Positions 7,731 to 64,000 of a DNA stretch of 64,000 nucleotides are shown here, piece by piece (position 1 is the first letter of the stretch; every line of letters starts with the position of its first letter). The notes under the pieces are model-generated. The model worked only from the letters and a program-made list of their open reading frames with translations. It made no database searches and was not told where the DNA came from. A program made the translations under genes and the position numbers. The stretch comes from Tachypleus tridentatus (taxonomy: Eukaryota; Arthropoda; Merostomata; Xiphosura; Limulidae): positions 58,830,107-58,894,106 of the forward strand of contig NC_134829.1 in assembly GCF_004210375.1 (NCBI RefSeq). The letters are read 5' to 3'.

Positions 7731-8199
7731 GCATGAAATGGTATGCCGGTAGAATGGATTTGGTTGTTATAATATATTGTGTGGTTTTGAACGTTAATAC
7801 AAGCCCTATTATATAACTTTGGCCTAAACCTTTAGGTAGTACTACATTTTCTAAGTAGTGCAATTCAGTTCTAAATCTTCTTTGTGAGTTCAGTGATTGT
7901 AGGATTCTCTTCCTAAAACTAAAAAATAATCGTTCTATTCATAACTTACATACATGTATTTAAATATCTGTGTGTGTATAACATGGAATAATTCGCAAAG
8001 ATACTAGTTAAAATTTCTTAGAAGTCAAATTGTTAATGAAAACAGCTTTATATTATTTTCTCTTCAGGTTTAAAATCAGACAAAACCAATCACAATGTTA
8101 CTGAAAAAAATTGCCTTTGTCAGGATACCACATTTTTCCTAGAGCAATCAGTGACACCCTCTGTGAGCTCCAAGAAAAATCAGTTCCTCCAGAGATTGT

Positions 8200-8625
8200 G
8201 ACAAAGGGACGCTTAACACTGCATTTTGTAATGCCGTAATAATAGTAAAACGTGTACATGCCATGAATCACGAGAATAATTATACAATCTGCAGGATACA
8301 AAACAGAATGAAATACCAACTTGAAAACAAGAAATAAAAACATTTTTTTACCTTCATTTTATTCTTATATGCTCTTGAAACAAAACACGTTAGAAGACTC
8401 TTCACCAAACGTCTAATTTACTAATATATTTCGTGAGTGCAAATCTAACTAAATATGAAGGAATGATATGTTCAGTTGATTAATTTCAGTTTCATTCATT
8501 AAAGGGAAAACAAAATTATGGAGACAAATATAATGAGATGATTCTTCAGAAAATAATGTAACCGTTAAATTAAAATTACAATAACAAACAGTTTGAACTG
8601 ATAAAGATGCCACATCGAAGAACGA
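8200..8625. repeat. Diverged end of an older tandem unit
   Basis: This stretch is recognisably related to 11970-12690 in the next unit (shared CGCTTAACA, TGCCACGAATTACGAG-like and AACAGTTTGAACTGAT blocks) but at clearly lower identity than A versus B. It suggests that the tandem array once began further left. The hypervariable exon expected upstream of it is not recognisable. Confidence 0.5.
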
Positions 8626-9069: not shown

Positions 9070-11815
9070 GTGAATCTTGGCCAATTAATGATACAATCTG
9101 GAATGAAGAAGAAGAATCAGTTCCTTCCGGGATTTTCATACCCAAAAGGTATGTATTCTCAAGTTCCTACCGGGATTTTCATACCCAATAGGTATGTATT
9201 CTCAAATAAATCCTGACTTTTATCTAAGTGGTTGCCAGGACGCTCTGCTCACAATACCCGGAAAACTGTTTTGAGCTCCTGTCACACCAAACACATTCAA
9301 CCTATTTAGTCGAAAGGGAAAATTAAAATATGACAGTCTATTTCATTATTCGTTGATCTAAGAGTAACCCAATAGTTGACAGTGTAAGGTGTTGACTTGG
9401 TGTCTTTCCTTTAGACTACAATTGCTGAAAATATGGTTGGTGTATACAGCCTACGTGTTGTTTCGCGCAAAATTGAAAAGAAACCAAATCAAATAGACTA
9501 AGTATCGAAAAAAAATTAAAATTATAAAAATATTTTAAAATAGTTTCTCAGCAAATATGTAACAGTTCATGTATATTATATATTGTTGTTCTTAGTTGTT
9601 TTTATCTCACCATAAAACTTGTGTTTTGATAAGAATGCGTACTATTGATGATTATAATCTGTTATCAAGCAGAAAAACTGTTATCTTAAAGATTCAATGA
9701 AAAGTATGTAATCCAATGATATAATTAGGTTTCATAGTTACTTACATAACCAATGTATTTCTTCAAGTACATTGCACATTTGCTGCTTGGCTAAAACTAG
9801 TTAAACGCTACCTGTCATAACATCTTTGCCGTCAACATCTTGTAGAGTCGTTTTCACTTATAATTTGTTTTGGGACCTTAATTCTTGTATTTTTGATTCA
9901 AGCAGACAAATTTGGTAACATATGTTTTATGTGACTTTGAAATAACCATAATTCGTTATCTATTCCACCATATAAATTTTCAAATACGTTTAATAATCAT
10001 TTGACAAACCTCAACTACTGTTTTTTCTCTATACACAATTGCAACCATTTTTCATTATAAGTAACTTTAACGTGGGTATTATAGTAACTTGTGAATGAGA
10101 GTAGAGAAGAATATGTTAACTCCATTACATCTGCAATATCCACTATTATCGAGGACCTCTGTATAATACCAGGACTCCACAGTTTGACTCATACACGACA
10201 GATCTAGTAGTTATTGAAATACTGTTCATATTGTTATACTGTCTGAATAATAATTGTTTTAGTGTGGATCGTGATATTTACCAATTTTATCTCAGTTGTT
10301 AACCATTAACATTAAGGTACTGATTTATCAATATAACACAATTCATTTAAATAAATATTGATCTTTTCTCATACAAGTCACTTTTGTGTAAATATACTAT
10401 GACAAATTAATTATTTGTAAGTATTGCTTCTATTCCAGTGACTTTGCCCCGCAGAAGAAATCATTGAAGGAGAGGATTGAGGACGGGTTTAGAAGAGTTT
10501 TTTGTTGTAAGCATCAAACCAAGCAGGAAAGAGTCTGGTGTCACGACTCGTAAGTTCTAGGTTTTTATGAATTAACTAGGATACCGTATTTTCATACTAC
10601 ATATACTCAACGTAATGTATAGCTTTACGAAAAAAGTCTGACTGAACTTATCGCTTCTTACGGCCCTTTTAGAAACCTACATTTCTTACTACACATATCC
10701 ATGTAATCGTTTTCACAGTGTACAGTTTAGCCGAAGGATAAACACTAAAGCTTTTGCGATAAGTGGCTTTGTGGACAACGTTGTGTGCCTTTTGTGTATT
10801 TTTTCTGATCCGAGTGAAAGCTATACTGACTATTTAACTCTATTTTACCTGAGACTAAATATCTAGAGGGTGAATAACTTGAACATCCAATTGACATTTA
10901 GTAGGCGTTTTCTTTTTGTTTTTGTATGAAACTCTCGTACATTTCATCACGAATATTCTCTGGTTGAAAACTGAGAGTTCTTAATTTCTCAACTCTCCTG
11001 GAAAGTCTCTCAGTAGCTTGATACCGATATTTTCAATTGATGGGTATTTTATGCTCACAAGGGCTAAATGGCAAGTCAGAATCACTTAACATTCCTAATT
11101 CTAAACAACTGACCAACTACTCATTACCATAAGAAACTTTAGCCGTCTGTTAGACCCGAAGAATGGGAATGACTGCCATTACTATAACCCGAGCACAACC
11201 GAACTTACGGGCTGTATTCAGCTGCATTGTGGCTCGAATATTAGACACTGAGAAACGCAACACTGCATACTGAATATCAGTTATTGCTGGCCCGTCCAAG
11301 TAGAATATAATAAGTATAAATTAATGTTATCTTTTAATCTCTGAAAGGATCTGTTTGAAGGAAGAGTGATGTGAAAAATGTAACAGATTTTAACATGTCC
11401 CTAGGGTAATCGACGATTTCTAATTTAAAATACGTTTATATTAAACACTAACTTGTATTGACTTTGTACATCATACAGCTTCGTTGGACTTCTTTGAAAA
11501 CCATGTCGTAGTTTCTTTTTTGTTTATTTCTTACTATCATCCGCGTGGCATGACAGTAATTGGATGTCTCACCTTTTAATTTATGCTTGTATAAAAGGGA
11601 AACAACAATCTGTGCTTTAACAACATTTTTTCTCTCCAAAACACACTCTAGTAGCAATGAAGAGATTGAATGGGATAGCTCATCCGTTTGGAATTATACG
11701 ATTGGTCGTGTTGTTGAATTTAAAAAGGATGAAAAACGTGTTGCAGAGATATTAAAGTCTGAGAACAAACCTCACGGATTTTGTATTGGTAAGAAGATGT
11801 TAAAGAACAGTAATG
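9070..11815 (+). CDS. PDZ gene array, copy A (three exons, PDZ incomplete)
   Basis: Exons at 9070-9148, 10439-10549 and 11652-11815 have AG/GT borders and phases that chain in frame. Exon 1 encodes ESWPINDTIW...GIFIPK, exon 2 encodes DFAPQKKSLKERIEDG...FCC..., and exon 3 encodes SSNEEIEWD... ending in the start of a PDZ domain (KPHGFCIGKK). Exon 2 has an FCC pair that could be acylated (guess). No exon with the rest of the PDZ lies before copy B, so A either uses the terminal exon at 17522 or is a truncated duplicate. Its exon 3 donor is GTTAGC, weaker than the GTAAGC of B and D. The first coding exon with a start codon was not found. Exon 3 differs strongly from copy B although the introns barely differ. 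Confidence 0.6.
9127..9212 (+). repeat. 43-bp tandem duplication across an exon end and splice donor
   Basis: The end of exon 1 with its donor (CCGGGATTTTCATACCC...GTATGTATTCTCAA) is repeated immediately, 43 bp downstream, giving two GTATGT donors. Using the second one would shift the frame and end the exon in TAG. The same duplication is present in copies B (13328 onward) and D (59661 onward), so it predates the array duplication. Confidence 0.8.
9226..9483 (+). repeat. Old decayed SINE
   Basis: Diverged SINE body, recognisable by CCTGTCACACCAAACA, ATTATTCGTTGAT, AAGAGTA and a TTTCGCGCAAAA end. Matching copies at about 13427-13686 and 59761-60013 show that it was in place before the tandem duplication. 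Confidence 0.6.
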
Positions 11816-11871
11816 GTTAGCAGTCTCTTGTTTGTATCAGAATAGCGTTTCTTTTATTATTATTATTACAG

Positions 11872-11926
11872 TAAAAGATGACCTGGAGAGATCACCCATT
11901 TTAATCACTTACACCACTTTATGGTA
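11872..11926 (+). other. Possible alternative terminal exon of the PDZ gene
   Basis: Directly after exon 3 comes a well-formed 56-bp intron-like stretch (GT...TATTATTATTACAG). Splicing there joins phase 1 to 1 and gives VKDDLERSPIL... ending at TAG after about 17 residues. The same arrangement exists in B, C and D. Use of this exon would yield a protein that stops inside the PDZ. Since the units are nearly identical here, conservation says nothing, and no transcript was available. Confidence 0.25.
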
Positions 11927-12222
11927 GTGTGTTGTCTGTCTATAACGTAGTTACTAGACACTAAAATGTTGTCACTTAAGAAACGCTTAACATTGTAATT
12001 TGTTCTGCCGTGACGTAAGTGAATCGTGCACATGCCACGAATTACGAGAAAGATAATACAATCTGTAGAATACAACACAGCATGAAGTAAGAACTTGAAA
12101 AGCAAGAAATTAAAATATTTGTGACGATTCATTTAGATTTTATCTGTTCTTGGTACAAAACACGTCAGAAGTCCCTTCACCAAACATCAAGATGATTAAT
12201 ATATGTCGTGAGTGCAAATCTA

Positions 12223-12502
12223 GTTTGTTTGTTTGCTGCTGAATTTCGCGAAAAGCTACTCGAGGGCTATCTGTGCTACCCGTCCCTAATTTAGCAGTGT
12301 AAGACGAGAGGGAAAACAGCTAGTCATCACCACCCACCGCCAACTCTTGGGCTACTCTTTTACCAACGAATAGTGGGATTGACCGTCACATTATAACGCC
12401 CCCACGGCTGAAAGGGCGAGCACGTTTAGCGCGACGGGAATGCGAACCCGCGACCCTCAGATTCCGAGTTGCACGCCTTAACACGCTTGGTCATGCCGGG
12501 CC
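12223..12502 (-). repeat. SINE with 13-bp target duplication
   Basis: Full-length minus-strand SINE from TTTGTTTGTTTG... to GGCCATGCCGGGCC-like ends. It is flanked by perfect 13-bp repeats GAGTGCAAATCTA at 12210-12222 and 12503-12515, the signature of LINE-mediated retroposition. The allele or paralogue at about 58552-58832 has the same insertion. Confidence 0.9.
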
Positions 12503-12831
12503 GAGTGCAAATCTAAAGAAAGATGATAGGATTAAGAGTTCAATTTTTTATTTTTAAATTAATTAATTATAGGGGAAACAACAATATCATGGCATAATCC
12601 GGCAGAAAATAACGTGACGGTTAATTTAAAATTACGATAACAACAGTTTTGAACTGATGATGATGATGTCGTATTAAAGGTCCATATGATTTAGTTATTA
12701 AAGTCAGGATTTACCTGGTGTAGAAGTTGTTGTTATTGTATTTTGAATTTAATTATTTAGTCAAGCAGGTTTTGCATCGTAACTGAAACAATTTTATCTT
12801 AACGTTTAAAATTTCACTTCAATAGTTTTAA

Positions 12832-13100
12832 GCCCGACTTGGCCAGGTGGTTAATACATTGAAATCGTAATCCCAAAGTTTCGAGTTCGAATCCCTGTCG
12901 CGCCAAACATGTTTGCCCTTTCTGCTGTGGGGACGCTATAATTTGAGGTTCAATCCCTTTATTCGTTGATAAAAGAGTAGCCAAAAAGTTGGCGGTGGGT
13001 GGTGATGACTAGCTGCCTTCCCTCTAGTCTTACACTGCTAAATTAGGGACGGCTAGCAAAGACAGTTTTGGTGTATCTTTGCACGAACGTAAAAAAAAAG
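12832..13100 (+). repeat. tRNA-derived SINE, plus strand
   Basis: Head GCCCGACTTGGCCAGGTGG, B-box GAGTTCGAATCCC, standard body, then a TTTGCACGAACG tail with an A-run. It lies at the border between units A and B, and its equivalent is at about 59161-59418. Confidence 0.85.
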
Positions 13101-13270
13101 GACAATACGATGTAGTTATTAAAGTCATAGTTTACCTCGTGTAAAAGCTGCTGTTATTGTGTTTTGAATTTAATTATTTAATATAGCAGATTCCTTACTA
13201 GATATCAAAGCAAAACTAGTTTAGATGTTATTTAATTTTGTAGAAATCAGTATTTTTTATCTTGACTTAG

Positions 13271-16200
13271 GTGAATCTTGGCCAATCAATGATACAATCT
13301 GGAATGAAGAAGAAGAATCAGTTCCTTCCGGGATTTTCATACCCAAAAGGTATGTATTCTCAAGTTCCTACCGGGATTTTCATACCCAATAGGTATGTAT
13401 TCTCAAATAAATCCTGACTTTTATCTAAGTGGTTGCCAGGACGCTCTGCTCACAATACCCAGAAAGCTGTTTTGAGCACCTGTCACACCAAACACATTCA
13501 ACCTATTTGGTCGAAAGAGAAAATTAAAATATGACAGTTTATTTCATTATTCGTTGATCTAAGAGTAACCCAATAGTTGACAGTGTAAGGTGTTGACTTG
13601 GTGTCTTTCCTTTAGACTACAATTGCTGAAAATATGGTTGGTGTATACAGCCTACGTGTTGTTTCGCGCAAAATTTAAAAGAAACCAAATCAAATAGACT
13701 AAGTATCGAAAAAAATTAAAATTATAAAAATATTTTAAAATAGTTTCTCAGCAAATATGTAACAGTTCATGTATATTATATATTGTTGTTCTTAGTTGTT
13801 TTTATCTCACCATAAAACTTGTGTTTTGATAAGAATGCGTACTATTGATGATTATAATCTGTTATCAAGCAGAAAAACTGTTAACTTAAAATTCAATGAA
13901 AAGTATGTAATCCAATGATGTAATTAGGTTTCATAGTTACTTACATAACCTCTGTATTTCTTCAATACATTGCACCTTTGCTGCTTGGCAACAACTAGTA
14001 AAAAGCTACCTGTCATAACATCTTTGCCGTCAACATCTTGTAGAGTCGTTTTCACTTATAATTTGTTTTGGGACCTTAATTCTTGTATTTTTGATTCAAG
14101 CAGACATATTGGTAACATATGTTTTATGTGACCGTGAAATAACCATAATTCGTTATCTATTCCACCATATAAATATTTATGTACGTTTAATAATCATCTG
14201 ACTAACCTCAACTACTGTTTTTCTCTATACACAATTGCAACCATTTTTCATTATAAGTAATTTTAGTGTGGGTATTATAGTAACTTGTGAATGAGAGTAG
14301 AGAAGAATATGTTAACTCCATTACATCTGCAATATCCACTATTATCGAGCACCTCTGTATTATACCAGGACTCCACAGTTTCACTGACACACGACAGATC
14401 TAGTAGTTATTGAAATACTGTTCATACTGTTATACTGTCTGAACAATAATTGTTTTAGTGTGGATCGTGATATTTATCAATTTTATCTCAGTTGTTAACC
14501 ATTAACATTAAGGTACTGATTTATCAATATAACACAATTCATTTAAATAAATATTGATCTTCTCTCATACAAGTCACTTTTGTGTAAATATACTATGACA
14601 AATTAATTATTTGTAAGTATTGCTTCTATTCCAGTGACTTTGCCCCGCAGAAGAAATCATTGAAGGAGAGGATTGAGGACGGGTTTAGAAGAGTTTTTTG
14701 TTGTAAGCATCAAACCAAGCAGGAAAGAGTCTGGTGTCACGACTCGTAAGTTCTAGGTTTTTATGAATTAACTAGGATACCGTATTTTCATACTACATAT
14801 ACTCAACGTAATGTATAGCTTTACGAAAAAGTCTGACTGAACTTATCGCTTCTTACGGCCCTTTTAGAAACCTACATTTCTTACTACACATATCCATGTA
14901 ATCGTTTTTCACAGTGTACAGTTTAGCCGAAGGATAAACACTAAAGCTTTTGCGATAAGTGGCTTTGTGGACAACGTTGTGTGCCTTTCGTGTATTTTTT
15001 TCTGATCCGAGTGAAAGCTATACTGACTATTTAACTCTATTTTACCTGAGACTAAATATCTAGAGGGTGAATAACTTGAACATCCAATTGACATTTAGTA
15101 GGCGTTTTCTTTTTGTTTTTGTATGAAACTCTCGTACATTTCATCACGAATATTCTCTGGTTGAAAACTGAGAGTTCTTAATTTCTCAACTCTCCTGGAA
15201 AGTCTCTCAGTAGCTTGATACCGATATTTTCAATTGATGGGTATTTTATGCTCACAAGGGCTAAATGGCAAGTCAGAATCACTTAACATTCCTAATTCTA
15301 AACAACTGACCAACTACTCATTACCATAAGAAACTTTAGCCGTCTGTTAGACCCGAAGAATGGGAATGACTGCCATTACTATAACCCGAGCACAACCGAA
15401 CTTACGGGCTGTATTCAGCTGCATTGTGGCTCGAATATTAGACACTGAGAAACGCAACACTGCATACTGAATATCAGTTATTGCTGGCCCGTCCAAGTAG
15501 AATATAATAAGTATAAATTTATCTTTTAATCTCTGAAAGGATCTGTTTGAAGGAAGAGTGATGTGAAAAATGTAACAGATTTTAACATGTCCCTAGGGTA
15601 ATCTACGATTTCTAATTTAAAATACGTTTATATTAAACTTTAACTTGTATTGACTTTGTATATCATACAGCTTCGTTGGACTTCTTTGAACAACCATGTC
15701 GTAGTTTCTTTTCTGTTTATTTCTTACTATCATCCGCGTGGCATGACAGTAATTGGATGTCTCACCTTTTTAATTTATGCATGTATAAAGGGAAACAACA
15801 ATCTGTGCTTTAACAACATTTTTCTCTCCAAAACACACTCCAGTAGTAATGATAATGAAGAAATCGAGTTGGATAGCTCACCAGTTGTGAATTACCCGAC
15901 TGGTCGTGTCATTAAGTTTGAAGAGGATGAAAACGTGTTATAGAAATAGTGAAGCCTAAAAATAGACCTTTCGGATTTTGTATTGCTAAGAAGAAGTTAA
16001 AGAACAGTAATGGTAAGCAGTCTCTTGTTTGTATCAGAATAGCGTTTCTTTTATTATTATTATTACAGTAAAAGATGACCTGGAGAGATCACCCATTTTA
16101 ATCATTTACACCACTTTATGGTAGTGTGTTGTCTGTCTATAACTTAGTTACTAGACACTGAAATGTTGTCATTTAAGAAACGCTTAACATTGCAATTTGT

Positions 16201-17700
16201 ACTGCCGTGACGTTAGTGAATCGTGCACATGCCACGAATTATGAGAATAATAATACAATCTGTAGGATACAACACATCATGTAGTCATAGTTTATATTTC
16301 GTTAAGGATAAGGCTGCTCTGAGTTGACCTAAGGTTTGGTTTTGGAGTCTGTTGCTGTCCTGTGTGCTCTGCTATACGATTGCTTTCGCTTCATTGGAAA
16401 ACACTTCAATAGTTTTGAGCCTGACTTGGCCCGATGGTTAACACATTGAAATCGTAATCCGAGGGTTGCGAGTTCGAATCCCTGTCACACGAAACATACT
16501 CGTCCTTTCAGCCGTGGGTCTGTTATAACTGACGGTCAATCCCACTATTCGCTGGTAAAAGAGTAGCTCAAGAGTTGGCTATGGGCGGTGATGACTAGCT
16601 GCCTTCCTTGTTGTATTACATTTTAAATTAGGAACGCCTAGCATAGATAGCTCTCGTGAAGCTTTGTGCGAATTTCAAACACAAACAAACTTTATTGGTT
16701 TTACACTTTGCGCTTAATATGGTTTTAAAATAAAGTTTTTAAAACAGTTAGGGTGAGCATAGGGCAGATAGACCTTTGTTAAGATTAAACGCGCACACAC
16801 ACAGATTCACTCCGAATTGTCGTAACAGATTGATTATTGTATGGCTTAGGATATTCTTCACTCAAAGCCACCTATGGAATAACTGCACATAGCAGTTCCA
16901 GGTTTTAAACTTATTAATAAGATAGAAGTTAATTACTCAATAAAACCGTTGTCCTTTTCAGCCTACTCCAGAGCAACATCCTGCCCATTTAACAGTTTCA
17001 ATAGGTAAAAACAATTGTTCGATATGACCTAATATGTTGTTTTTCCTCCTGAAGTTAACAGCCAAGAACAAGTCCATAATTTGAGGGATAAGTAATGTAA
17101 TAAATATACGAATTGAGCACAGTCAATGAGGACCAATTTGCTCAGAGCACGTTGTATTACCAACAGTTTTATAACAGAGTCTAGAAAAAATTGCGTTATC
17201 ATGCCTACATAGTTGTAAGTCGCTATTCCATGTGTCTTTCATTGATTTGTTGTTACTTTAAGGAATGTTTTTGTTGTGAAAAGAGAAGAGGAAGGATTTT
17301 AACTGGTTAACGCGATCTAAATATTCAAACATTTTCTTTTCTTATTCGGACAATATGTTTTCAAGCTATTTTGTATTCGTGTCTTACCTCATTAACATTG
17401 TTAAACAAAGCAAGTTAGCAATTCATAGACGAATTTTAGTAAAGAAGATTGACGCACTAAATAGCAAAAATTACTACAAAGTGTACATATATGTATATAT
17501 TTATTGTTTTAATGGTTTCAGGAGTTTTCGTTACTCGTATTCAAAATTTCGAAACATTTATTTCACTCACTGGAATTCTTGATCCCGGTGATGAAATTCT
17601 AGAAATAGATAGCGTTAGTGTCAGCCGAAAAAACATCAAAGAAATCAGAAATATGATAACAAATACCGACAAAATACGGTTCACAACCCGGTCATTTTGA
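13271..17700 (+). CDS. PDZ gene array, copy B (four exons, one frameshift)
   Basis: Exons at 13271-13349, 14635-14745, 15844-16012 and 17522-17700 match A and D in borders and phase. The last exon encodes GVFVTRIQNF...ILDPGDEILEID...IRNMI...IRFTTRSF and a TGA. Exons 3 and 4 together make a PDZ domain: a GFCI carboxylate-binding loop, a GDEILEID strand and a final alpha/beta pair. The order RPFGFCI...GVFVTRI...DEILEI resembles the Par-6 PDZ (KPLGFYI...GIFISRL...DEVLEV); this likeness is by eye. Exon 3 is 169 bp against 170 bp in D. One A is missing near 15931, so the frame ends soon after, before the PDZ. That could be a real null or a homopolymer consensus error. If it is an error, B encodes a complete C-terminal PDZ protein. 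The start exon is not in view. Confidence 0.65.
16418..16690 (+). repeat. tRNA-derived SINE inside the last intron of copy B
   Basis: Head GCCTGACTTGGCCCGATGG, B-box GAGTTCGAATCCC, body, and a tail ending in AATTTCAAACACAAACAAAC. The equivalent copy is at about 62757-63029 in unit D. The bases before it (CACTTCAATAGTTTTGAG) match those before the SINE at 12832, so the two are duplicates of one insertion. Confidence 0.8.
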
Positions 17701-17830
17701 ATTTGGAAGGAGAAATAAATACATTGTAAATAGTAATTTGTGTATTTATATATGTTATTTTTGTTGTTTAAAATTGTAAATTAATAAATTAAGAAAAGTG
17801 TAAATTGTATTGTTTATTTTATTAAATGTA

Positions 17831-18045
17831 TTGCAAAATGTTGTATTGGATTTTATTGTTCAAATGATGAAATAACACCAACAGAATTCAAGACAGATAA
17901 TACAAAATTGTTGTATGGATTTTATTGTTCAAATGATGAAATAACACCAACAGAATTCAAGACAGATAATACAAAATTGTCTGCTGGATTTTATTGTTCA
18001 AATGATGAAACAACAGAAACAGAATTCAAGACAGACTTGCTACAG
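17831..18045 (+). repeat. 69-bp minisatellite, three units
   Basis: Three tandem units with a 69-bp period (GGATTTTATTGTTCAAATGA at about 17848, 17917 and 17986). Sixty-nine is a multiple of three, and units two and three read through in one frame as GFYCSNDE...TEFKTD. Unit one carries an extra base that breaks this frame. It lies just after the stop of PDZ copy B, so it may be 3' UTR or a decayed repeat-protein exon. Confidence 0.8.
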
Positions 18046-19769: not shown

Positions 19770-20560
19770 ATAATCTCTCATTCCCAGCTTGATGTAAAAG
19801 TTTGAGTCTTCTTGCTGAACGTGATGTTGATATTTGTTGCGGTTGATACGTCTGCAGTCTTAATGAGCGTGGGTTGAGCTTGGCAGGATGCTGTCTTCTT
19901 TGGTTTGAGTCGCTGCTGAAAGGTAACGTCTACGTAGGTCGGAGTATCCTTGTCTTTCTTCTTAGCATTAATTAAAGTATTCCTGCTTGCATCAGAGATA
20001 ATTGGCATACATGAAGATAAGAAGCTTACTGGAATAGAAGTACCATGATTGACGGACTTGACATTTTGAAGATTAGTTGATCGATGTTGGGGCGTTCGGC
20101 ACTAAAGTGAAAATACTGTAGGATACATCCGTGTTTAAGTATAAAATCAGCTACCTGTTTGTCTTCGGTCACAACTTTAACAAAGTTAGTTGGCAATGCC
20201 GTGGTCTTGGAATGAATTCTGTGAGCAGCATGGAGTTGCGTGAAAGTTGTTGTTTCCAGAGAATGTCGAATTCCAGCAGGAGTTAAGACAAATGAACGTT
20301 CTTAATAAATATCGAATACAAGCAACGTGAACTTCAGGCAGGAGAGCATTGAACGTTAATATCTACTTTCCATGGTTTACATACATATGCATGGTCCTGG
20401 AGTGTTGAAAGCTGCAGTAACATGCCTCCTCGCTGAAGAATTTTGGTTTTTCTAGGGTCAACTGAGACGCTAGGATTGAACTGATCGATGAAGACAACAT
20501 GGCAGCGATGACTTCTCACGTCTAAACACTTCAGCTACTTGTCGAAGAATGAAACGAGGT
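19770..20560 (-). mobile_element. Broken gag/ORF1-like retroelement fragment
   Basis: Minus-strand segments resemble the nucleic-acid-binding first ORF of arthropod retroelements: a region with PSVSVDPRKT...GGMLLQLST, a region with NFVKVVTEDKQVADFILK, then a Lys-rich segment. I see no reverse transcriptase nearby. It is broken in several places and old. Family assignment is uncertain (a non-LTR element is favoured over an LTR element). Confidence 0.35.
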
Positions 20561-20799
20561 TATTGATGTCAATTCGTCTCTGCATTTATACGCTTCTAAC
20601 GGTAAACTAACACGTTATGTGATTAGTCTTATTCTTGACAGGTACAAAACTACAGAATGGAATACACAGGAATACCTCGTACAGGGCGGTTAATGCGTGG
20701 GAAACACAACCGCATTGATTTAATCAGCATTGAACGGGGAATAGTTTCAACAGGAAAAATAACGATACGTGGGTATCATAAGGGATTTTTTCATAGTAG

Positions 20800-21789
20800 A
20801 AATAATTAAGCCTGATTAGTTAGAAAAATAGAAATAGTTATGAGGTAAAATAAAAGCGATATTAATTTGTAAACTTTTGAATTTTTTGTAATTTTGAAAA
20901 AATAAAAAAAAATTAAAATGTTACTGATTAAAGAAAATCTATCTCTTCTTGGTTGCACCATTTTCTTTTTCTTTATTTCAATTCTCGGTAACATCGAATG
21001 ACATTTTATAACCGCACTCCAGGTCTGAATCATGATTAAGTATGTAGCAGTTTCCACTGCCCGAAACATTGTTTCAAGTTCCAGTAAGATAAATCATTCT
21101 TCCTGCTCTTCACTAGCACCTTCGTTACACTCCGGACTTTCTTCTTCTTTCTGATATGCCCGATCTTGGTCTAAATTAAAGAGCGTATCATTGTCGAGAG
21201 TTTGAGAATGTGCGTAAATGCACTCTCGGACATTAGCCACGACCAAAGACTCGAAATAAATAGTGTGTCCAATTTAGATGACGTCTTCGGAAACATCCCT
21301 AATTTCGGACTCAAAGCCGAAGGAATGACTTGCGCCATCAGGCAAAACGTGCTTCCACGTCGCTCTCGTGTTACTCTTGCTAACTTGGAACCATGCTTCG
21401 TTGATGTTTGCGACAGCACTTCTGATGTAATTTTTCCAGAATTCAGTCATAGATAGTGCAGCTTCTCTAGTTGTAGCCTTTCTTGCTTGAGAAAATGTTC
21501 GCTTAAAATAATTAGCTTTAAACGTCGCAATGACACCTTGATCCGTTGGTTGCAGTGGACATGTTCTATTGAATGGAAAAAGTGAATTTTGAGATTTTCG
21601 TAAAGTCACAATGTCCCGTTAGACGGCTTGGTGCATTACCTAATAAAACAAAGCTTTAAAGTCCAAGTTGTTTGTTTTCTTTGCAGTAATGTTCAGCTGT
21701 TGGACAAAATTAGCTTTTCACCAGTCATCAAACAAAGTTTTCGTAATTCATACTTTTTTATTTGATCGCCAAACAAGTGAAAGGGTCTT
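20800..21789 (-). pseudogene. Tigger (pogo-type) transposon, distal half
   Basis: Minus-strand reading gives the C-terminal half of a Tigger/pogo DDE transposase: NKK...TKTLFDDW, then NNLDFKAL, then LQPTDQGVIATFKANYFKRTF and TEFWKNYI...AWFQVSKSN. In the family these precede and include the last catalytic Asp region. An acidic tail (DNDTLFNLDQDRAYQKEEE) follows near 21120-21190. Several in-frame stops and shifts show a dead copy. Its proximal half lies 14.5 kb away at 36262, because a second transposon has inserted between them. The outer terminal repeat was not identified, so the left limit is approximate. Confidence 0.8.
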
Positions 21790-22165
21790 CCTAGCACGCA
21801 AGGTGACGTTGAATAAACGTTGAAATGAGGTTGGAAAGGTTGAAGAATGGTTGAGGTTGGATACTCAACGTCTAACCAACGTTGAGAATTGGTTGTATGG
21901 CCAACCATGCTAACTGCGTTGAGAGTGTAACGTTGATTAAACGTCGGAACAACGTCTGAATATTGACGTAGCCAATGGCGTTGAATATACGACATATAAT
22001 CAACGTTGAGGACTTGTGGTATGGCCAACCATTGCAGTTACGTGGAGCGACAGACGTTGATTCATCGTTGCATCAAAGACAAATTATCCACGTGAAAAAC
22101 ACGACATTTATTCAATGTTGAGAACATGTAGTTTTGCTAAACGTTCAAATATCGTTGAGTGACAG
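21790..22165. repeat. Left CAACGTT-rich end of the CMC-type element
   Basis: About 375 bp packed with AACGTT and ACGTTGA motifs in both orientations (the core AACGTT is its own complement), plus TATGGCCAACCAT blocks at about 21896 and 22019. It is the partner of the right array at 35801-36261. In CACTA elements, subterminal motif arrays bind an element-encoded protein. That role is inferred here. Confidence 0.8.
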
Positions 22166-22171
22166 ACGTCA

Positions 22172-22210
22172 GGGGCGTAGCTAGAGAGTTATGAAAGTAT
22201 ATACGGTGTA
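22172..22210 (+). repeat. End fragment of a CAGGGGCG-type MITE
   Basis: CAGGGGCGTAGCTAGAGAG matches the terminal style of the complete short elements at 22486 and 22795. No matching right end is visible, so this is a truncated copy. Confidence 0.45.
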
Positions 22211-22485
22211 GGGAGAGCCCCGCCTACCCACCCACCCAACAACAAAATTTTACGTGCAGACAGTTTCATAAACTGTAGGCCTATATGAAAACTTGGAATT
22301 CAACCGTGAATTACTTAAATTACCATGTAATTTTCGAGTGACAGGCCTTAAGCGTTTAATTTTTATCTATTTATGTTTAAAACTTTCTGACGACTTTCTT
22401 TTACATGTAATGCCGATTTGCGAAAAAAATAATCACCACTGCTGCAAAACCAAAATGTCATCATTAAAGTTCTTCTTTCACTGAA

Positions 22486-22665
22486 CAGTGGCGAATCCAG
22501 GGGGGGTTAGGGGGTTTAAACCCCCCTTGCCGGAAAAAATTACCTTTTTTTGCAGTATATTTCGTGAATTTCTAGTGCTAACCCCCCCCTCGGGGCCTTG
22601 TTCATAGGGTTTCTTCAGGTCCCATAGTCTGAACCCCCCTTTCCAAAATCCTAGATCCGCCCCTG
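22486..22665. mobile_element. 180-bp MITE, 5-bp target duplication CTGAA
   Basis: Inverted ends CAGTGGCGAATCCAGG and, from the other side, CAGGGGCGGATCTAGG, with C- and G-runs inside. The flanks are CTGAA at 22481-22485 and 22666-22670. A 5-bp duplication with CAG...GGCG ends suggests a hAT5-like non-autonomous element (from memory). It is nested in the CMC-type element. Confidence 0.85.
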
Positions 22666-22794
22666 CTGAAAGATCACTTTTCACATAAACTAAGTATGAA
22701 GTTGAATTCAGAAACTAGTAGTATATACATATATATTGATCACATCCTTTAAATATAGTCAAGTAGAGATACAACGCATCAATATGAACACTTT

Positions 22795-23024
22795 CAGGGA
22801 CGTATATTACCATTAAACCATGTATATAGACAAAAGTTGCGAGGGCGCGAAAGACCCGGGGGGGTAGGATATTAAAAATTTTCCAAAATTACATTATAAA
22901 TGGGCTAAATTTAAACATATTGAAGCTTAGGAGAATGAAATTTATAGGACTGAAATTATAAGATATATAATTCTGGACAGCCTTTGATGTTAAGGCAAAT
23001 GCCTAATGGTAATATACGCCCCTG
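22795..23024. mobile_element. 230-bp MITE, 5-bp target duplication ACTTT
   Basis: Ends CAGGGACGTATATTACCATTA and, from the right, CAGGGGCGTATATTACCATTA. The perfect flanks are ACTTT at 22790-22794 and 23025-23029. It has no coding capacity and contains a G-run near 22858. Same terminal style as its neighbours. Confidence 0.9.
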
Positions 23025-23759
23025 ACTTTGAAAAATGATACTGTAAGGAAAGTCAAAATGCTTTCAATGCTCTCTTCCTTAAAGAGCCATTGTTGTACAC
23101 TATCAGTACAGACAATAATGCTGATTGTACTTCATCGTACGGGCAAATAGGAACATAGGAACTATCTTAGGGCAGATGACTGCAGAGACAGGGATGAATC
23201 TGTGGCTGGAGCAATCTATTATGACGAAACGGTAAAGATGCGAAGGAAAAATTTTGGAAAATGACCTTGTTTTGCCATTTCTCCCAAACTTCTATGTTGG
23301 TAATTGATCTCTCCCCTCCCCTGACGGTTTTTTCATCTGACCATCACCAGACGGGTGCAGAGGGTTATCTATTTTCAAAGTGACTAACAGAATGGGTGGT
23401 TAAAATAGCAAACATCATACTCGGTTTTGGAAATCTCCCAAGACTGCTGTCAGACATAAATTTTCATTATTAAACTGATCGCAGAAAATTGTGGAATGTT
23501 GGCCGGAATATTTTGATCAGATAAAATTAATGATTTTTTACAATGACAACTATTTAAATTAAAAGTTTCTAGAAACTTAACATCAAACACGATGCCAACA
23601 CACATTGAAGATCGAAGATTTGGAATCTTTACTGCAGTGCATGGTATTTTTGAAAGAAAAGTATTTCTGTACAGAATTTCACCAAAATCTATTATACAGG
23701 CAAGTATTTCCATTCAATAATGAACGAACGATATAGAATAGGGCAGCCTAAAATACTAC
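23025..23759. other. Interior of the CMC-type element, no gene recognised
   Basis: About 730 bp without a supportable exon. A reading frame on the minus strand (23450-23713) has no recognisable motif. The stretch may be original element sequence or further nested repeats. Confidence 0.4.
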
Positions 23760-23826
23760 CTTTTTTTTTTGCTTGTCCAACCTGCGTCAGGGGGAGAGTC
23801 CCCCCAACCAAACTCCGCCGCCTATA
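23760..23826. repeat. Partial copy of the GGCGGCGGAG MITE
   Basis: A right end CCAACCAAACTCCGCCGCCTATA is preceded by C-runs and a T-run. It matches the right end of the complete element at 24016-24415, but its left end is missing. Confidence 0.5.
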
Positions 23827-24015
23827 ACAATGATGCTAAAAGGCACAGGATAGGCCTAATTCTATATAGGGACTACCCTAGCCAATAATAATTATTATAG
23901 TCTTTATTTGTCGATAAATTGAAGTTGGTTGCAGGATTGATATCCCCTTCCCATATGATAGACAATTTGTCATGCATGCATAATCGCGAGGGTAGATCTA
24001 CCAATTTAAAGTTTT

Positions 24016-56122: not shown

Positions 56123-56767
56123 AAAACTAGTTAAACGCTACCTGTCATAACATCTTTGCCGTCAACATCTTGTAGAGTCGTTTTCACTTATAATTTGTTT
56201 TGGGACCTTAATTCTTGTATTTTTGATTCAAGCAGACAAATTTGGTAACATATGTTTTATGTGACTTTGAAATAACCATAATTCGTTATCTATTCCACCA
56301 TATAAATTTTCAAATACGTTTAATAATCATTTGACAAACCTCAACTACTGTTTTTCTCTATACACAATTGCAACCATTTTTCATTATAAGTAACTTTAAC
56401 GTGGGTATTATAGTAACTTGTGAATGAGAGTAGAGAAGAATATGTTAACTCCATTACATCTGCAATATCCACTATTATCGAGGACCTCTGTATAATACCA
56501 GGACTCCACAGTTTCACTGACACACGACAGATCTAGTAGTTATTGAAATACTGTTCATATTGTTATACTGTCTGAACAATAATTGTTTTAGTGTGGATCG
56601 TGATATTTATCAATTTTATCTCAGTTGTTAACCATTAACATTAAGGTACTGATTTATCAATATAACACAATTCATTTAAATAAATATTGATCTTCTCTCA
56701 TACAAGTCACTTTTGTGTAAATATACTATGACAAATTAATTATTTGTAAGTATTGCTTCTATTCCAG

Positions 56768-58145
56768 TGACTTTGCCCCGCAGAAGAAATCATTGAAGGA
56801 GAGGATTGAGGACGGGTTTAGAAGAGTTTTTTGTTGTAAGCATCAAACCAAGCAGGAAAGAGTCTGGTGTCACGACTCGTAAGTTCTAGGTTTTTATGAA
56901 TTAACTAGGATACCGTATTTTCATACTACATATACTCAACGTAATGTATAGCTTTACGAAAAAGTCTGACTGAACTTATCGCTTCTTACGGCCCTTTTAG
57001 AAACCTACATTTCTTACTACACATATCCATGTAATCGTTTTTCACAGTGTACAGTTTAGCCGAAGGATAAACACTAAAGCTTTTGCGATAAGTGGCTTTG
57101 TGGACAACGTTGTGTGCCTTTTGTGTATTTTTCTGATCCGAGTGAAAGCTATACTGACTATTTAACTCTATTTTACCTGAGACTAAATATCTAGAGGGTG
57201 AATAACTTGAACATCCAATTGACATTTAGTAGGCGTTTTCTTTTTGTTTTTGTATGAAACTCTCGTACATTTCATCACGAATATTCTCTGGTTGAAAACT
57301 GAGAGTTCTTAATTTCTCAACTCTCCTGGAAAGTCTCTCAGTAGCTTGATACCGATATTTTCAATTGATGGGTATTTTATGCTCACAAGGGCTAAATGGC
57401 AAGTCAGAATCACTTAACATTCCTAATTCTAAACAACTGACCAACTACTCATTACCATAAGAAACTTTAGCCGTCTGTTAGACCCGAAGAATGGGAATGA
57501 CTGCCATTACTATAACCCGAGCACAACCGAACTTACGGGCTGTATTCAGCTGCATTGTGGCTCGAATATTAGACACTGAGAAACGCAACACTGCATACTG
57601 AATATCAGTTATTGCTGGCCCGTCCAAGTAGAATATAATAAGTATAAATTAATGTTATCTTTTAATCTCTGAAAGGATCTGTTTGAAGGAAGAGTGATGT
57701 GAAAAATGTAACAGATTTTAACATGTCCCTAGGGTAATCGACGATTTCTAATTTAAAATACGTTTATATTAAACACTAACTTGTATTGACTTTGTACATC
57801 ATACAGCTTCGTTGGACTTCTTTGAAAAACCATGTCGTAGTTTCTTTTTTGTTTATTTCTTACTATCATCCGCGTGGCATGACAGTAATTGGATGTCTCA
57901 CCTTTTTAATTTATGCTTGTATAAAAGGGAAACAACAATCTGTGCTTTAACAACATTTTTTCTCTCCAAAACACACTCTAGTAGCAATGAAGAGATTGAA
58001 TGGGATAGCTCATCCGTTTGGAATTACACGATTGGTCGTGTTGTTGAATTTAAAAAAGATGAAAAACGTGTTGCAGAGATATTAAAGTCTAAGAACAAAC
58101 CTCACGGATTTTGTATTGGTAAGAAGATGTTAAAGAACAGTAATG
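56768..58145 (+). CDS. PDZ gene array, copy C (exons 2 and 3 only)
   Basis: Exons at 56768-56878 and 57982-58145 correspond to copy A exons 2 and 3. Exon 2 is identical in protein. Exon 3 has three base changes against A, one of them replacing Glu by Lys (LKSKNKPHGFCIGKK). Exon 1 was lost at the duplication border, and no PDZ-completing exon follows before copy D. As in A, the exon 3 donor is GTTAGC. On its own this copy cannot make a full PDZ, but its phases allow joining to the D terminal exon at 63860. Confidence 0.6.
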
Positions 58146-58551
58146 GTTAGCAGTCTCTTGTTTGTATCAGAATAGCGTTTCTTTTATTATTATTATTACA
58201 GTAAAAGATGACCTGGAGAGATCACCCATTTTAATCACTTACACCACTTTATGGTAATGTGTTGTCTGTCTATAACGTAGTTACTAGACACTAAAATGTT
58301 GTCACTTAAGAAACGCTTAACATTGCAATTTGTTCTGCCGTGACGTTAGTGAATCGTGCACATGCCACGAATTACGAGAATAATAATACAATCTGTAGAA
58401 TACAACACAGCATGAAGTAAGAACTTGAAAAGCAAGAAATTAAAATATTTGTGACGATTCATTTAGATTTTATCTGTTCTTGGTACAAAACACGTCAGAA
58501 GTCCCTTCACCAAACATCAAGATGATTAATATATGTCGTTAGTGCAAATCT

Positions 58552-58832
58552 AGTTTGTTTGTTTGCTGCTGAATTTCGCGAAAAGCTACACGAGGGCTAT
58601 CTGTGCTACCCGTCCCTAATTTAGCAGTGTAAGACGAGAGGGAAAACAGCTAGTCATCACCACCCACCGCCAACTCTTGGGCTACTCTTTTATCAACGAA
58701 TAGTGGGATTGACCGTCACATTATAACGCCCCCACGGCTGAAAGGGCGAGCACGTTTAGCGCGACGGGAATGCGAACCCGCGACCCTCAGATTCCGAGTT
58801 GCACGCCTTAACACGCTTGGTCGTGCCGGGCC
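58552..58832 (-). repeat. SINE, equivalent of 12223-12502
   Basis: Same insertion as in unit A with near-identical sequence. The left target-duplication copy has one change (TAGTGCAAATCTA). Confidence 0.9.
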
Positions 58833-59160
58833 GAGTGCAAATCTAAAGAAAGATGATAGGATTAAGAGTTCAATTTTTATTTTTAAATTAATTAATTATA
58901 GGGGAAACAACAATATCATGGCATAATCCGGCAGAAAATAACGTGACGGTTAATTTAAAATTACGATAACAACAGTTTTGAACTGATGATGATGATGTCG
59001 TATTAAAGGTCCATATGATTTAGTTAGTAAAGTCAGGATTTACTTGGTGTAGAAGTTGTTGTTATTGTATTTTGAATTTAATTATTTAGTCAAGCAGGTT
59101 TTGCATCGTAACTGAAACAATTTTATCTTAACGTTTAAAATTTCACTTCAATAGTTTTAA

Positions 59161-59418
59161 GCCCGACTTGGCCAGGTGGTTAATACATTGAAATCGTAAT
59201 CCCAAAGTTTCGAGTTCGAATCCCTGTCGCGCCAAACATGTTTGCCCTTTCTGCTGTGGGGACGCTATAATTTGAGGTTCAATCCCTTTATTCGTTGATA
59301 AAAGAGTAGCCAAAAAGTTGGCGGTGGGTGGTGATAACTAGCTGCCTTCCCTCTAGTCTTACACTGCTAAATTAGGGACGGCTAGCAAAGACAGTTTTGG
59401 TGTATCTTTGCACGAACG
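59161..59418 (+). repeat. SINE, equivalent of 12832-13100
   Basis: Same insertion and border position as in unit B, with the A-run at its end differing in length (AAAAAAAGAAAAGG here). Confidence 0.85.
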
Positions 59419-59603
59419 TAAAAAAAAGAAAAGGACAATACGATGTAGTTATTAAAGTCATAGTTTACCTCGTGTAAAAGCTGCTGTTATTGTGTTTTGA
59501 ATTTAATTATTTAATATAGCAGATTCCTTACTAGATATCAAAGCAAAACTAGTTTAGATGTTATTTAATTTTGTAGAAATCAGTATTTTTTATCTTGACT
59601 TAG

Positions 59604-62600
59604 GTGAATCTTGGCCAATCAATGATACAATCTGGAATGAAGAAGAAGAATCAGTTCCTTCCGGGATTTTCATACCCAAAAGGTATGTATTCTCAAGTTC
59701 CTACCGGGATTTTCATACCCAATAGGTATGTATTCTCAAATAAATCCTGACTTTTATCTAAGTGGTTGCCAGGACGCTCTGCTCACAATACCCAGAAAGC
59801 TGTTTTGAGCACCTGTCACACCAAACACATTCAACCTATTTGGTCGAAAGAGAAAATTAAAATATGACAGTCTATTTCATTATTCGTTGATCTAAGAGTA
59901 ACCCAATAGTTGACAGTGTAAGGTGTTGACTTGGTGTCTTTCCTTTAGACTACAATTGCTGAAAATATGGTTGGTGTATACAGCCTACGTGTTGTTTCGC
60001 GCAAAATTTAAAAGAAACCAAATCAAATAGACTAAGTATCGAAAAAAAAATTAAAATTATAAAAATATTTTAAAATAGTTTCTCAGCAAATATGTAACAG
60101 TTCATGTATATTATATATTGTTGTTCTTAGTTGTTTTTATCTCACCATAAAACTTGTGTTTTGATAAGAATGCGTACTATTGATGATTATAATCTGTTAT
60201 CAAGCAGAAAAACTGTTAACTTAAAAATTCAATGAAAAGTATGTAATCCAATGATATAATTAGGTTTCTTAGTTACTTACATAACCTATGTATTTCTTCA
60301 ATACATTGCACCTTTGCTGCTTGGCTGCAACTAGTTAAACGCTACCTGTCATAACATCTTTGCCGTCAACATCTTGTAGAGTCGTTTTCACTTATAATTT
60401 GTTTTGGGACCTTAATTCTTGTATTTTTGATTCAAGCAGACAAATTTGGTAACATATGTTTTATGTGACCGTGAAATAGCCATAATTCGTTATCTATTCC
60501 ACCATATAAATATTTATGTACGTTTAATAATCATCTGACTAACCTCAACTACTGTTTTTCTCTATACACAATTGCAACCATTTTTCATTATAAGTAATTT
60601 TAGTGTGGGTATTATCGTAACTTGTGAATGAGAATAGAGAAGAATATGTTAACTCCATTACATCTGCAATATCCACTATTATCGAGGACCTCTGTATTAT
60701 ACCAGGACTCCACAGTTTCACTGACACACGACAGATCTAGTAGTTATTGAAATACTGTTCATACTGTTATACTGTCTGAACAATAATTGTTTTAGTGTGG
60801 ATCGTGATATTCATCAATTTTATCTCAGTTGTTAACCATTAACATTAAGGTACTGATTTATCAATATAACACAATTCATTTAAATAAATATTGATCTTCT
60901 CTCATACAAGTCACTTTTGTGTAAATATACTATGACAAATTAATTATTTGTAAGTATTGCTTCTATTCCAGTGACTTTGCCCCGCAGAAGAAATCATTGA
61001 AGGCGAGGATTGAGGACGGGTTTAGAAGAGTTTTTTGTTGTAAGCATCAAACCAAGCAGGAAAGAGTCTGGTGTCACGACTCGTAAGTTCTAGGTTTTTA
61101 TGAATTAACTAGGATACCGTATTTTCATACTACATATACTCAACGTAATGTATAGCTTTACGAAAAAAGTCTGACTGAACTTATCGCTTCTTACGGCCCT
61201 TTTAGAAACCTACATTTCTTACTACACATATCCATGTAATCGTTTTCACAGTGTACAGTTTAGCCGAAGGATAAACACTAAAGCTTTGTGATAAGTGGCT
61301 TTGTGGACAACGTTGTGTGCCTTTCGTGTATTTTTTTCTGATCCGAGTGAAAGCTATACTGACTATTTAACTCTATTTTACCTGAGACTAAATATCTAGA
61401 GGGTGAATAACTTGAACATCCAATTGACATTTAGTAGGCGTTTTCTTTTTGTTTTTGTATGAAACTCTCGTACATTTCATCACGAATATTCTCTGGTTGA
61501 AAACTGAGAGTTCTTAATTTCTCAACTCTCCTGGAAAGTCTCTCAGTAGCTTGATACCGATATTTTCAATTGATGGGTATTTTATGCTCACAAGGGCTAA
61601 ATGGCAAGTCAGAATCACTTAACATTCCTAATTCTAAACAACTGACCAACTACTCATTACCATAAGAAACTTTAGCCGTCTGTTAGACCCGAAGAATGGG
61701 AATGACTGCCATTACTATAACCCGAGCACAACCGAACTTACGGGCTGTATTCAGCTGCATTGTGGCTCGAATATTAGACACTGAGAAACGCAACACTGCA
61801 TACTGAATATCAGTTATTGCTGGCCCGTCCAAGTAGAATATAATAAGTATAAATTTATCTTTTAATCTCTGAAAGGATCTGTTTGAAGGAAGAGTGATGT
61901 GAAAAATGTAACAGATTTTAACATGTCCCTAGGGTAATCTACGATTTCTAATTTAAAATACGTTTATATTAAACTTTAACTTGTATTGACTTTGTATATC
62001 ATACAGCTTCGTTGGACTTCTTTGAACAACCATGTCGTAGTTTCTTTTCTGTTTATTTCTTACTATCATCCGCGTGGCATGACAGTAATTGGATGTCTCA
62101 CCTTTTTAATTTATGCATGTATAAAAGGGAAACAACAATCTGTGCTTTAACAACATTTTTTCTCTCCAAAACACACTCCAGTAGTAATGATAATGAAGAA
62201 ATCGAGTTGGATAGCTCACCAGTTGTGAATTACCCGACTGGTCGTGTCATTAAGTTTGAAGAGGATGAAAAACGTGTTATAGAAATAGTGAAGCCTAAAA
62301 ATAGACCTTTCGGATTTTGTATTGCTAAGAAGAAGTTAAAGAACAGTAATGGTAAGCAGTCTCTTGTTTGTATCAGAATAGCGTTTCTTTTATTATTATT
62401 ATTACAGTAAAAGATGACCTGGAGAGATCACCCATTTTAATCATTTACACCACTTTATGGTAGTGTGTTGTCTGTCTATAACTTAGTTACTAGACACTGA
62501 AATGTTGTCATTTAAGAAACGCTTAACATTGCAATTTGTACTGCCGTGACGTTAGTGAATCGTGCACATGCCACGAATTATGAGAATAATAATACAATCT

Positions 62601-64000
62601 GTAGGATACAACACATCATGTAGTCATAGTTTATATTTCGTTAAGGATAAGGCTGCTCTGAGTTGACCTAAGGTTTGGTTTTGGAGTCTGTTGCTGTCCT
62701 GTGTGCTCTGCTATACGATTGCTTTCGCTTCATTGGAAAACACTTCAATAGTTTTGAGCCTGACTTGGCCCGATGGTTAACACATTGAAATCGTAATCCG
62801 AGGGTTGCGAGTTCGAATCCCTGTCACACGAAACATACTCGTCCTTTCAGCCGTGGGTCTGTTATAACTGACGGTCAATCCCACTATTCGCTGGTAAAAG
62901 AGTAGCTCAAGAGTTGGCTATGGGCGGTGATGACTAGCTGCCTTCCTTGTTGTATTACATTTTAAATTAGGAACGCCTAGCATAGATAGCTCATGTGAAG
63001 CTTTGTGCGAATTTCAAACACAAACAAACTTTATTGGTTTTACACTTTGCGCTTAATATGGTTTTAAAATAAAGTTTTAAAACAGTTAGGGTGAGCATAG
63101 GGCAGATAGACCTTTGTTAAGATTAAACGCGCACACACACAGATTCACTCCGAATTGTCGTAACAGATTGATTATTGTATGGCTTAGGATATTCTTCACT
63201 CAAAGCCACCTATGGAATAACTGCACATAGCAGTTCCAGGTTTTAAACTTATTAATAAGATAGAAGTTAATTACTCAATAAAACCGTTGTCCTTTTCAGC
63301 CTACTCCAGAGCAACATCCTGCCCATTTAACAGTTTCAATAGGTAAAAACAATTGTTCGATATGACCTAATATGTTGTTTTTCCTCCTGAAGTTAACAGC
63401 CAAGAACAAGTCCATAATTTGAGGGATAAGTAATGTAATAAATATACGAATTGAGCACAGTCAATGAGGACCAATTTGCTCAGAGCACGTTGTATTACCA
63501 ACAGTTTTATAACAGAGTCTAGAAAAAATTGCGTTATCATGCCTACATAGTTGTAAGTCGCTATTCCATGTGTCTTTCATTGATTTGTTGTTACTTTAAG
63601 GAATGTTTTTGTTGTGAAAAGAGAAGAGGAAGGATTTTAACTGGTTAACGCGATCTAAATATTCAAACATTTTCTTTTCTTATTCGGACAATATGTTTTC
63701 AAGCTATTTTGTATTCGTGTCTTACCTCATTAACATTGTTAAACAAAGCAAGTTAGCAATTCATAGACGAATTTTAGTAAAGAAGATTGACGCACTAAAT
63801 AGCAAAAATTACTACAAAGTGTACATATATGTATATATTTATTGTTTTAATGGTTTCAGGAGTTTTCGTTACTCGTATTCAAAATTTCGAAACATTTATT
63901 TCACTCACTGGAATTCTTGATCCCGGTGATGAAATTCTAGAAATAGATAGCGTTAGTGTCAGCCGAAAAAACATCAAAGAAATCAGAAATATGATAACAA
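59604..64000 (+). CDS. PDZ gene array, copy D (intact, cut by window end)
   Basis: Exons at 59604-59682, 60972-61082, 62182-62351 and 63860 to beyond 64000 chain in frame without a break. Exon 3 is 170 bp and open throughout (SSNDNEEIELDSS...RVIEIVKPKNRPFGFCIAKK), so D is the only copy in view with a complete open exon 3 followed by the exon completing the PDZ (GVFVTRIQNF...GDEILEID...). Exon 2 has one replacement against the other copies (KERIEDG becomes KARIEDG). The domain is read as a Par-6-like PDZ that would bind C-terminal peptides of partners in the cytoplasm or at the cell cortex; this is inferred from the fold only. The start exon is not in the window. Confidence 0.65.
62757..63029 (+). 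repeat. SINE, equivalent of 16418-16690
   Basis: Same intron insertion as in copy B, with only a few base differences (for example AGCTCATG here versus AGCTCTCG). Confidence 0.85.

What the first reader, a model, noticed from the sequence alone, without database searches (positions are those of the whole stretch)
11652..16012. Exon-confined divergence: a fast-changing PDZ exon between near-identical introns
Exon 3 of copy A (11652-11815) and copies B/D (15844-16012, 62182-62351) differs at about 18% of bases: about 17 replaced codons, about 8 silent codon changes and a two-codon indel over 54 codons. The 300 bp of intron directly before and the 230 bp directly after differ by only about 3%. 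Exons 1 and 2 of the units are almost unchanged. The change starts and stops at the splice sites. It covers the segment before the PDZ and the ligand-binding loop (KPHGFCIGKK versus RPFGFCIAKK). Diversifying selection with continual homogenisation of introns, or exon replacement by gene conversion from another paralogue, could explain it. The silent changes are also raised, which favours conversion or replacement over simple selection.
Basis: partly seen in the sequence, partly recalled or inferred. Interest (0 to 1): 0.8.

Follow-up and report, generated by a model that had tools for sequence, protein, structure and literature searches.

The report
Divergent exons between near-identical introns
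In a horseshoe-crab genome a large family of small PDZ-domain genes has exons that differ much more from copy to copy than the introns beside them, which suggests that the copies keep overwriting each other's introns while some exons stay apart.

Summary
Exon 3 of copies A and D differs at 32 of 164 bases, the 5' intron at 11 of 332, with steps at the splice sites. The exon belongs to a small PDZ gene (PF00595); a pattern at its end has 81 matches on 15 contigs. Between exon types (intact copies of 92 aligned) dS is 0.10-0.46 where introns differ by 0.03-0.05; within types dS is only 1.5-2.9 times the 5' intron value. That argues against exon hypermutation. Omega is below 1 in 9 of 9 tested type pairs, so diversifying selection alone does not explain it. 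Exon 2 forms its own island in other loci, yet shows no substitution among units with different exon-3 types. The last exon's island includes 3'UTR and ends near the predicted poly(A) site. Best reading: amplification plus ectopic recombination homogenises introns and some exons while deep exon lineages resist. Exon replacement is the main rival; trees do not settle direction. Precedents: opsins, CEACAM, toxins. Copy B is frameshifted. A second species and RNA are needed.

The parts
9070..9148 (+). exon E1, unit A (GESWPINDTIWNEEEESVPSGIFIPKR)
   Evidence: weak open matches at 54-63% identity in older paralogues (E 0.03-0.58) and in L089; not divergent (3.4% vs 2.9% flank over 32 copies)
10439..10549 (+). 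exon E2, unit A
   Evidence: identical in unit B; own divergence island in other loci
11652..11815 (+). exon E3, unit A: linker and first half of PDZ (open)
13271..13349 (+). exon E1, unit B
14635..14745 (+). exon E2, unit B
15844..16012 (+). exon E3, unit B: frameshifted by a missing A
17522..17700 (+). last exon, coding part: second half of PDZ and stop codon
17701..17804 (+). 3'UTR part of the divergent island; AATAAA at 17783
   Evidence: extent of the transcript is predicted only
56123..64000 (+). second locus, 99.2% like 9793-17662; its first unit is cut at 56123
56768..56878 (+). exon E2, unit C (no E1 found before it)
57982..58145 (+). exon E3, unit C (A type, open)
59604..59682 (+). 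exon E1, unit D
60972..61082 (+). exon E2, unit D
62182..62351 (+). exon E3, unit D (open; reference of the B/D type)
63860..64000 (+). last exon of the second locus, cut by the window end
   Evidence: match C5:58893965-58894141

Best explanation
This is a large, recently amplified family of small PDZ-domain genes built of tandem 4.2-kb units (E1-E2-E3) followed, in the window, by one last exon. Shown: introns of copies on different chromosomes, and in many pairs whole neighbouring exons, are nearly alike, while single exons (E3; E2 in other loci; the last exon with 3'UTR) differ far more, silent sites included, with steps at the splice sites. Inferred: unequal crossing-over and ectopic gene conversion keep homogenising the units. 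Conversion tracts stop at, or are selected against across, exons that have already diverged, so a few old exon types persist on a shared intron background. Different E3 types would give different first halves of the PDZ, including the ligand loop, on a common second half. That A and B units are alternative cassettes spliced to the one last exon is inference from reading phase only.
For: Between types dS is 0.10-0.46 against intron K of 0.03-0.05 (3.3 to 14 times the 5' intron value); within types 1.5-2.9 times. Steps are sharp: L038 (A) and L044 (D) differ at 1 of about 330 upstream bases and at 24 exon bases (profile). E2 shows no substitution over 111 aligned bases (gaps not counted) among units bearing A, D and Bx types of E3, so exons about 1.1 kb apart have different histories. 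Among 34 non-redundant copies, distance correlation is 0.05 (jackknife SE 0.10) between the two flanks, 0.24 (0.08) exon with 5' flank and 0.40 (0.09) exon with 3' flank; with all 66 close copies 0.25, 0.46, 0.50. Four-gamete incompatibility is 16-26% in six site-class comparisons. One exon 3 (L019) looks by eye like a mosaic of A and B types. 69 of 92 copies are open.
Against: AU tests on intron trees do not reject the exon-type clades (p 0.45 for A, 0.31 for D), so incongruence is not formally shown. Exon sites are as four-gamete incompatible as 5' intron sites (0.22 vs 0.16), so recombination is not confined to introns. The 3'UTR is not translated, yet it was not homogenised (6 of 107 vs 2 of 357 flank, Fisher p 0.0025 for L013). 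The 3' flank has few variable sites (reliability 0.45); against the 3' intron, within-type dS ratios spread from 0.9 to 7.9. Between the two oldest groups, DADI and SLPLS, dS 0.56 hardly exceeds introns (0.42-0.48). No gene-conversion programme was run.
Confidence: 0.58

Rival explanations
1. Exon replacement: single exons are overwritten from more diverged paralogues by short conversion tracts (DNA or cDNA donor), on intron backgrounds that are otherwise simple recent duplicates.
For: In the 20 long loci fetched (6-10 kb each) long alignments to the window are mostly 93-99% identical, with four loci (L014, L025, L026, L027) down to about 90%, fitting recent duplication; exon-sized islands; exons of one gene have separate histories; intron trees not incongruent by AU.
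Against: The two flanks of one exon do not share a history better than either does with the exon. I did not identify a donor, and no systematic donor search was made.
Confidence: 0.25
2. Diversifying selection on point mutations in exon 3 alone, with introns at the neutral rate.
For: dN 0.17 exceeds intron K 0.03 for A-D; codon positions change about equally (11, 8, 12); the PDZ loop varies.
Against: Synonymous sites are raised even more (dS 0.43); omega below 1 in 9 of 9 tested type pairs; 3'UTR raised too.
Confidence: 0.06
3. Targeted exon hypermutation in the germ line.
For: Silent and replacement changes both raised; exon transition/transversion ratio is above that of introns for A-D (2.0 vs 0.7) and D-C8 (2.0 vs 1.1), though not for D-C19r (1.6 vs 1.8).
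Against: Within exon types dS is 1.5-2.9 times the 5' intron value against up to 14 between types; types are discrete and shared across chromosomes.
Confidence: 0.03
4. Assembly artefact: introns collapsed or patched by the assembler.
For: No reads were available; the four-A form in B and five other copies could be homopolymer error.
Against: Copies sit on many contigs and differ in their introns; exon and intron would collapse together; islands recur in E2 and the last exon.
Confidence: 0.04

Closest known systems
Primate L/M opsin genes (gibbon study, PMC3213168; abstract and section list seen)
   Same: Paralogue exons diverge more than introns; introns homogenised by conversion, central exons kept apart by selection
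   Different: Two genes of known function; here a dispersed family of many copies, several exons with separate histories, function unknown
CEACAM32 escape from concerted evolution (PMC7042247; abstract seen)
   Same: Conversion found in leader exon and introns, not in exons for the Ig-like domains
   Different: One escaping member in ruminants; here deep types recur across chromosomes
HLA class I intron homogenisation (Cereb et al. 1997, seen only as a reference title in PMC3051395; content recalled)
   Same: Introns conserved while binding-site exons keep old lineages (recalled)
   Different: Alleles of one locus; here paralogous units
Segment switching (ASSET) in three-finger toxin genes (PMC2474615; abstract and passages seen)
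   Same: Similar introns, strongly different exon segments
   Different: Here whole exons differ by scattered substitutions; no relation to toxins is claimed

Membership tests
PDZ domain (PF00595) | profile match above gathering score | tested here: met
   spliced D-type protein 33.1 bits, A-type 27.3, cut-off 23.2; E3 alone and E2+E3 give no match
Concerted evolution with exon escape (opsin/CEACAM type) | intron divergence below exon synonymous divergence | tested here: met
   10 of 10 comparisons between the five close types; excess small for the oldest pair DADI-SLPLS
Concerted evolution with exon escape (opsin/CEACAM type) | intron tree conflicts with exon tree | tested here: inconclusive
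   AU p 0.45 and 0.31; 8 versus 4 type changes on intron and exon trees (46 copies); flank decoupling
Concerted evolution with exon escape (opsin/CEACAM type) | conversion tracts detected by a dedicated test | not tested
   only four-gamete counts were made
Concerted evolution with exon escape (opsin/CEACAM type) | exon differences have a function that selection protects | not testable with these tools
   no expression or binding data
Diversifying selection | dN above dS | tested here: not met
   omega 0.06-0.93 in 9 tested of 28 possible type pairs; below 1 at 2dlnL over 3.84 in 2 of 9, one of them saturated (t 6.5)
Retroposition / cDNA-templated change | intronless copies in the genome | tested here: not met
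   150 of 528 candidates scored: no match covers two exons in full; some run up to about 20 residues past an exon end, e.g. the first row and several C6 rows

The most novel reading that the evidence does not exclude
The islands follow the mature mRNA, not the protein: E2, E3, and the last exon with its 3'UTR up to about the poly(A) site. A process acting on spliced RNA would draw these edges: either exon-limited conversion by cDNA of paralogues (3' exons changed, E1 not), or selection to escape small-RNA silencing, which sees spliced transcripts only.
Probability: 0.1. Interest if true: 0.85.

Novelty: new variant of a known kind. Interest (0 to 1): 0.52.

Why it matters
It is a natural case with many replicates, in which one genome holds dozens of tests of where homogenisation stops. 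It could show whether the edges of such islands are set by selection on protein, by mismatch-limited recombination, or by the spliced RNA. It also points to a large PDZ gene family in a horseshoe crab. I saw no description of it in the listings of three paper searches (6 of 6 listed, 12 of 23 listed, 2 of 2 listed); two horseshoe-crab genome papers listed hold the word PDZ 0 times. Most subscription papers are not held.

Tried and rejected
Argued against: hypermutation (within-type ratio), assembly collapse as main cause (islands recur), diversifying selection alone, visible retroposition. Tried without gain: Pfam and PDB searches of E1-E2-E3 without the last exon; IQ-TREE codon runs (stopped by the time limit after 4 of 5 runs; no omega was found in the outputs), replaced by a pairwise ML script; a supposed complete distant gene (L089) proved decayed, with E3 cut. 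Paper searches with no paper found. Of the 15 listed and the 6 I read passages of one only (PMC2474615).

Rows dropped: L001 and L003 (same as window), L004-L007 (duplicates of longer loci) and L084 (no match), leaving 92 copies. Searches used 66 close copies, 34 after removal of near-duplicates. One search used 69 intact copies, 68 of them grouped. One search used 46 intact close copies, without the mosaic L019. One search aligned 13 last-exon copies from other loci, of which one search tested 10. E1 and E2 were collected from 32 places each, close family only.
Full report
WHAT WAS CHECKED. The window lies on contig C5 of a 2.17-Gb genome in 205 contigs. Exon 3 coordinates are right. A and D differ at 32 of 164 bases and a 6-base indel; the 5' intron at 11 of 332. 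In 82-bp bins A versus B is 0-4.1% from 10201 up to the exon, 23.5% and 14.6% in the two exon bins, then 1.2% and 3.7%; further downstream it rises to 8.5% and more, where the two units part.

WHAT IT IS. Each 4.2-kb unit has three exons in matching phases: E1, E2, E3. After unit B comes a last exon, 17522-17700, which completes a PDZ domain: spliced D type PF00595 E 7.6e-8, A type 4.8e-6, both over the cut-off. The best solved relatives by sequence are PDZ domains (KIAA1719, PAR-6, CASK). The first exon upstream of E1 was not found, and no expression data were at hand. Copy B lacks one A of a run and is frameshifted; A, C and D are open. The same four-A form is found in five other copies.

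HOW LARGE. A 30-base pattern at the end of exon 3, with up to 3 mismatches, has 81 matches (0 in the reversed control) on 15 contigs. Protein searches give 150 scored matches each for E3 (of 216 candidates, E up to 10) and the last exon (of 247, E up to 1); these lists are capped, include weak rows and split some loci. In the 20 long loci fetched, long alignments to the window are mostly 93-99% identical; L014 and L025-L027 go down to about 90%.

THE PATTERN ACROSS THE GENOME. 92 exon-3 copies were aligned (96 found, 4 duplicates dropped); 69 are open, 23 are not. Between the five close types, intact copies give dS 0.10-0.46 where introns give 0.03-0.05. In comparisons with the older groups dS is 0.56-2.06 against 0.11-0.49 in introns; these values are near saturation, and for DADI-SLPLS the excess almost vanishes (0.56 against 0.42-0.48). 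Within types dS is 1.5-2.9 times the 5' intron value, SLPLS excepted, where one copy has a 5' flank that does not align well; against the shorter 3' intron the within-type ratio spreads from 0.9 to 7.9. So the exon is not simply mutating faster; types are deep and discrete. The profile is a step: for A-D 1.0%, 4.5%, 0% and 7.7% in the bins covering the last 30 intron bases, 13-21% through the first 150 exon bases, 10% and 0% in the last 20, and 0-1% from 7 to 60 bases past the donor. The first six intron bases give 15%, from one variable donor base. In older comparisons (for example D-NTEQ) the contrast is smaller.

OTHER EXONS. E1 is not raised (3.4% against 2.9% over 32 copies). E2 is, on average 9.5% against 2.9% over 32 copies, up to 25% in single comparisons. 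E2 shows no substitution over 111 aligned bases (gaps not counted) among units whose E3 is A, D or Bx type, and Bx-type E3 also occurs with an E2 that is 24% different. Exons about 1.1 kb apart therefore have separate histories. In the last exon, L013 against the window shows 13 of 177 coding, 6 of 107 in the 3'UTR (stop codon included) and 2 of 357 flanking differences; the last difference lies at 17800, 12 bases past the AATAAA at 17783-17788. Of the 10 loci tested, the UTR excess is under p 0.05 in 6 (L013, L012a, L011, L021, L019, L027) and not in 4 (L026, L014, L020, L023); the loci are related, so these are not independent tests. The cleavage site is predicted only.

SELECTION. ML omega is 0.06-0.93, below 1 in 9 of 9 type pairs tested (28 are possible), significantly so in 2, one of which is saturated. 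Codon positions change about equally for A-D (11, 8, 12). This fits weak constraint, perhaps with local positive selection; it does not show diversifying selection. In the PDZ ligand loop (position named from recall) the residue before GF varies: H, F, Y, Q, N.

WHICH SIDE MOVED. A tract ending at a splice site can be read as intron overwritten or exon replaced. Among 34 non-redundant copies the two flanks correlate at 0.05 with each other (0.09 corrected for noise), exon with 5' flank at 0.24 (0.29) and exon with 3' flank at 0.40 (0.64), jackknife errors 0.08-0.10; two halves of the 5' flank correlate at 0.90 and two halves of the exon at 0.86 after correction. That favours overwritten introns. 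Against it, intron trees do not reject exon types as clades (p 0.45, 0.31), and four-gamete conflict is as common within the exon as in introns. No match covering two exons in full was seen among the 150 scored of 528 candidates, so no retrocopy was found; some rows run up to about 20 residues past an exon end.

WHAT IS KNOWN. The same kind of pattern is published for gibbon L/M opsins and CEACAM32 (abstracts), and for three-finger toxin genes (passages). Not in those texts as far as I saw: the scale, separate histories of exons in one gene, and an island that includes the 3'UTR. Three paper searches listed no description of this PDZ family (one search listed 12 of 23).

Noticed in passing
window 20406-36392: About 16 kb absent from the related locus on C10 (L028), where the match runs from 20406 on to 36392; it holds a DDE_1 transposase ORF at 21274-21618 (-) and a 453-aa ORF at 25923-27284 (+) without a Pfam match at E 0.001.
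   Followed up: partly
window 15844-16012; L010, L028, L032, L041, L042 exon 3: The same shortened A run (four instead of five) breaks exon 3 in six copies, one of them unit B: a recurrent or shared deletion, or a recurrent homopolymer error of the assembly.
   Followed up: partly
L026, L027, L051-L057 exon 3: An 8-codon in-frame repeat (MDSSPIVE type) occurs 1 to 4 times in exon 3 of copies on C19, C8 and C9.
   Followed up: no
C14:7.655-7.672 Mb, C19:24.842-24.864 Mb: Arrays of five and six E3 units with no last exon nearby among the 150 scored matches; all five C14 units have a broken E3.
   Followed up: no
window 8115-8205: An older E1-like exon lies upstream of unit A (read by eye); a weak match to it is also in L089 (131-172, E 0.10).
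   Followed up: no
window 17850-18030: Tandem repeats of about 69 bp just past the 3'UTR; offsets between loci suggest that copy number varies.
   Followed up: no
window 38339-40115 and 47979-49742: A 98.4% identical repeat pair; the first copy ends exactly at the 500-N gap 40116-40615.
   Followed up: no
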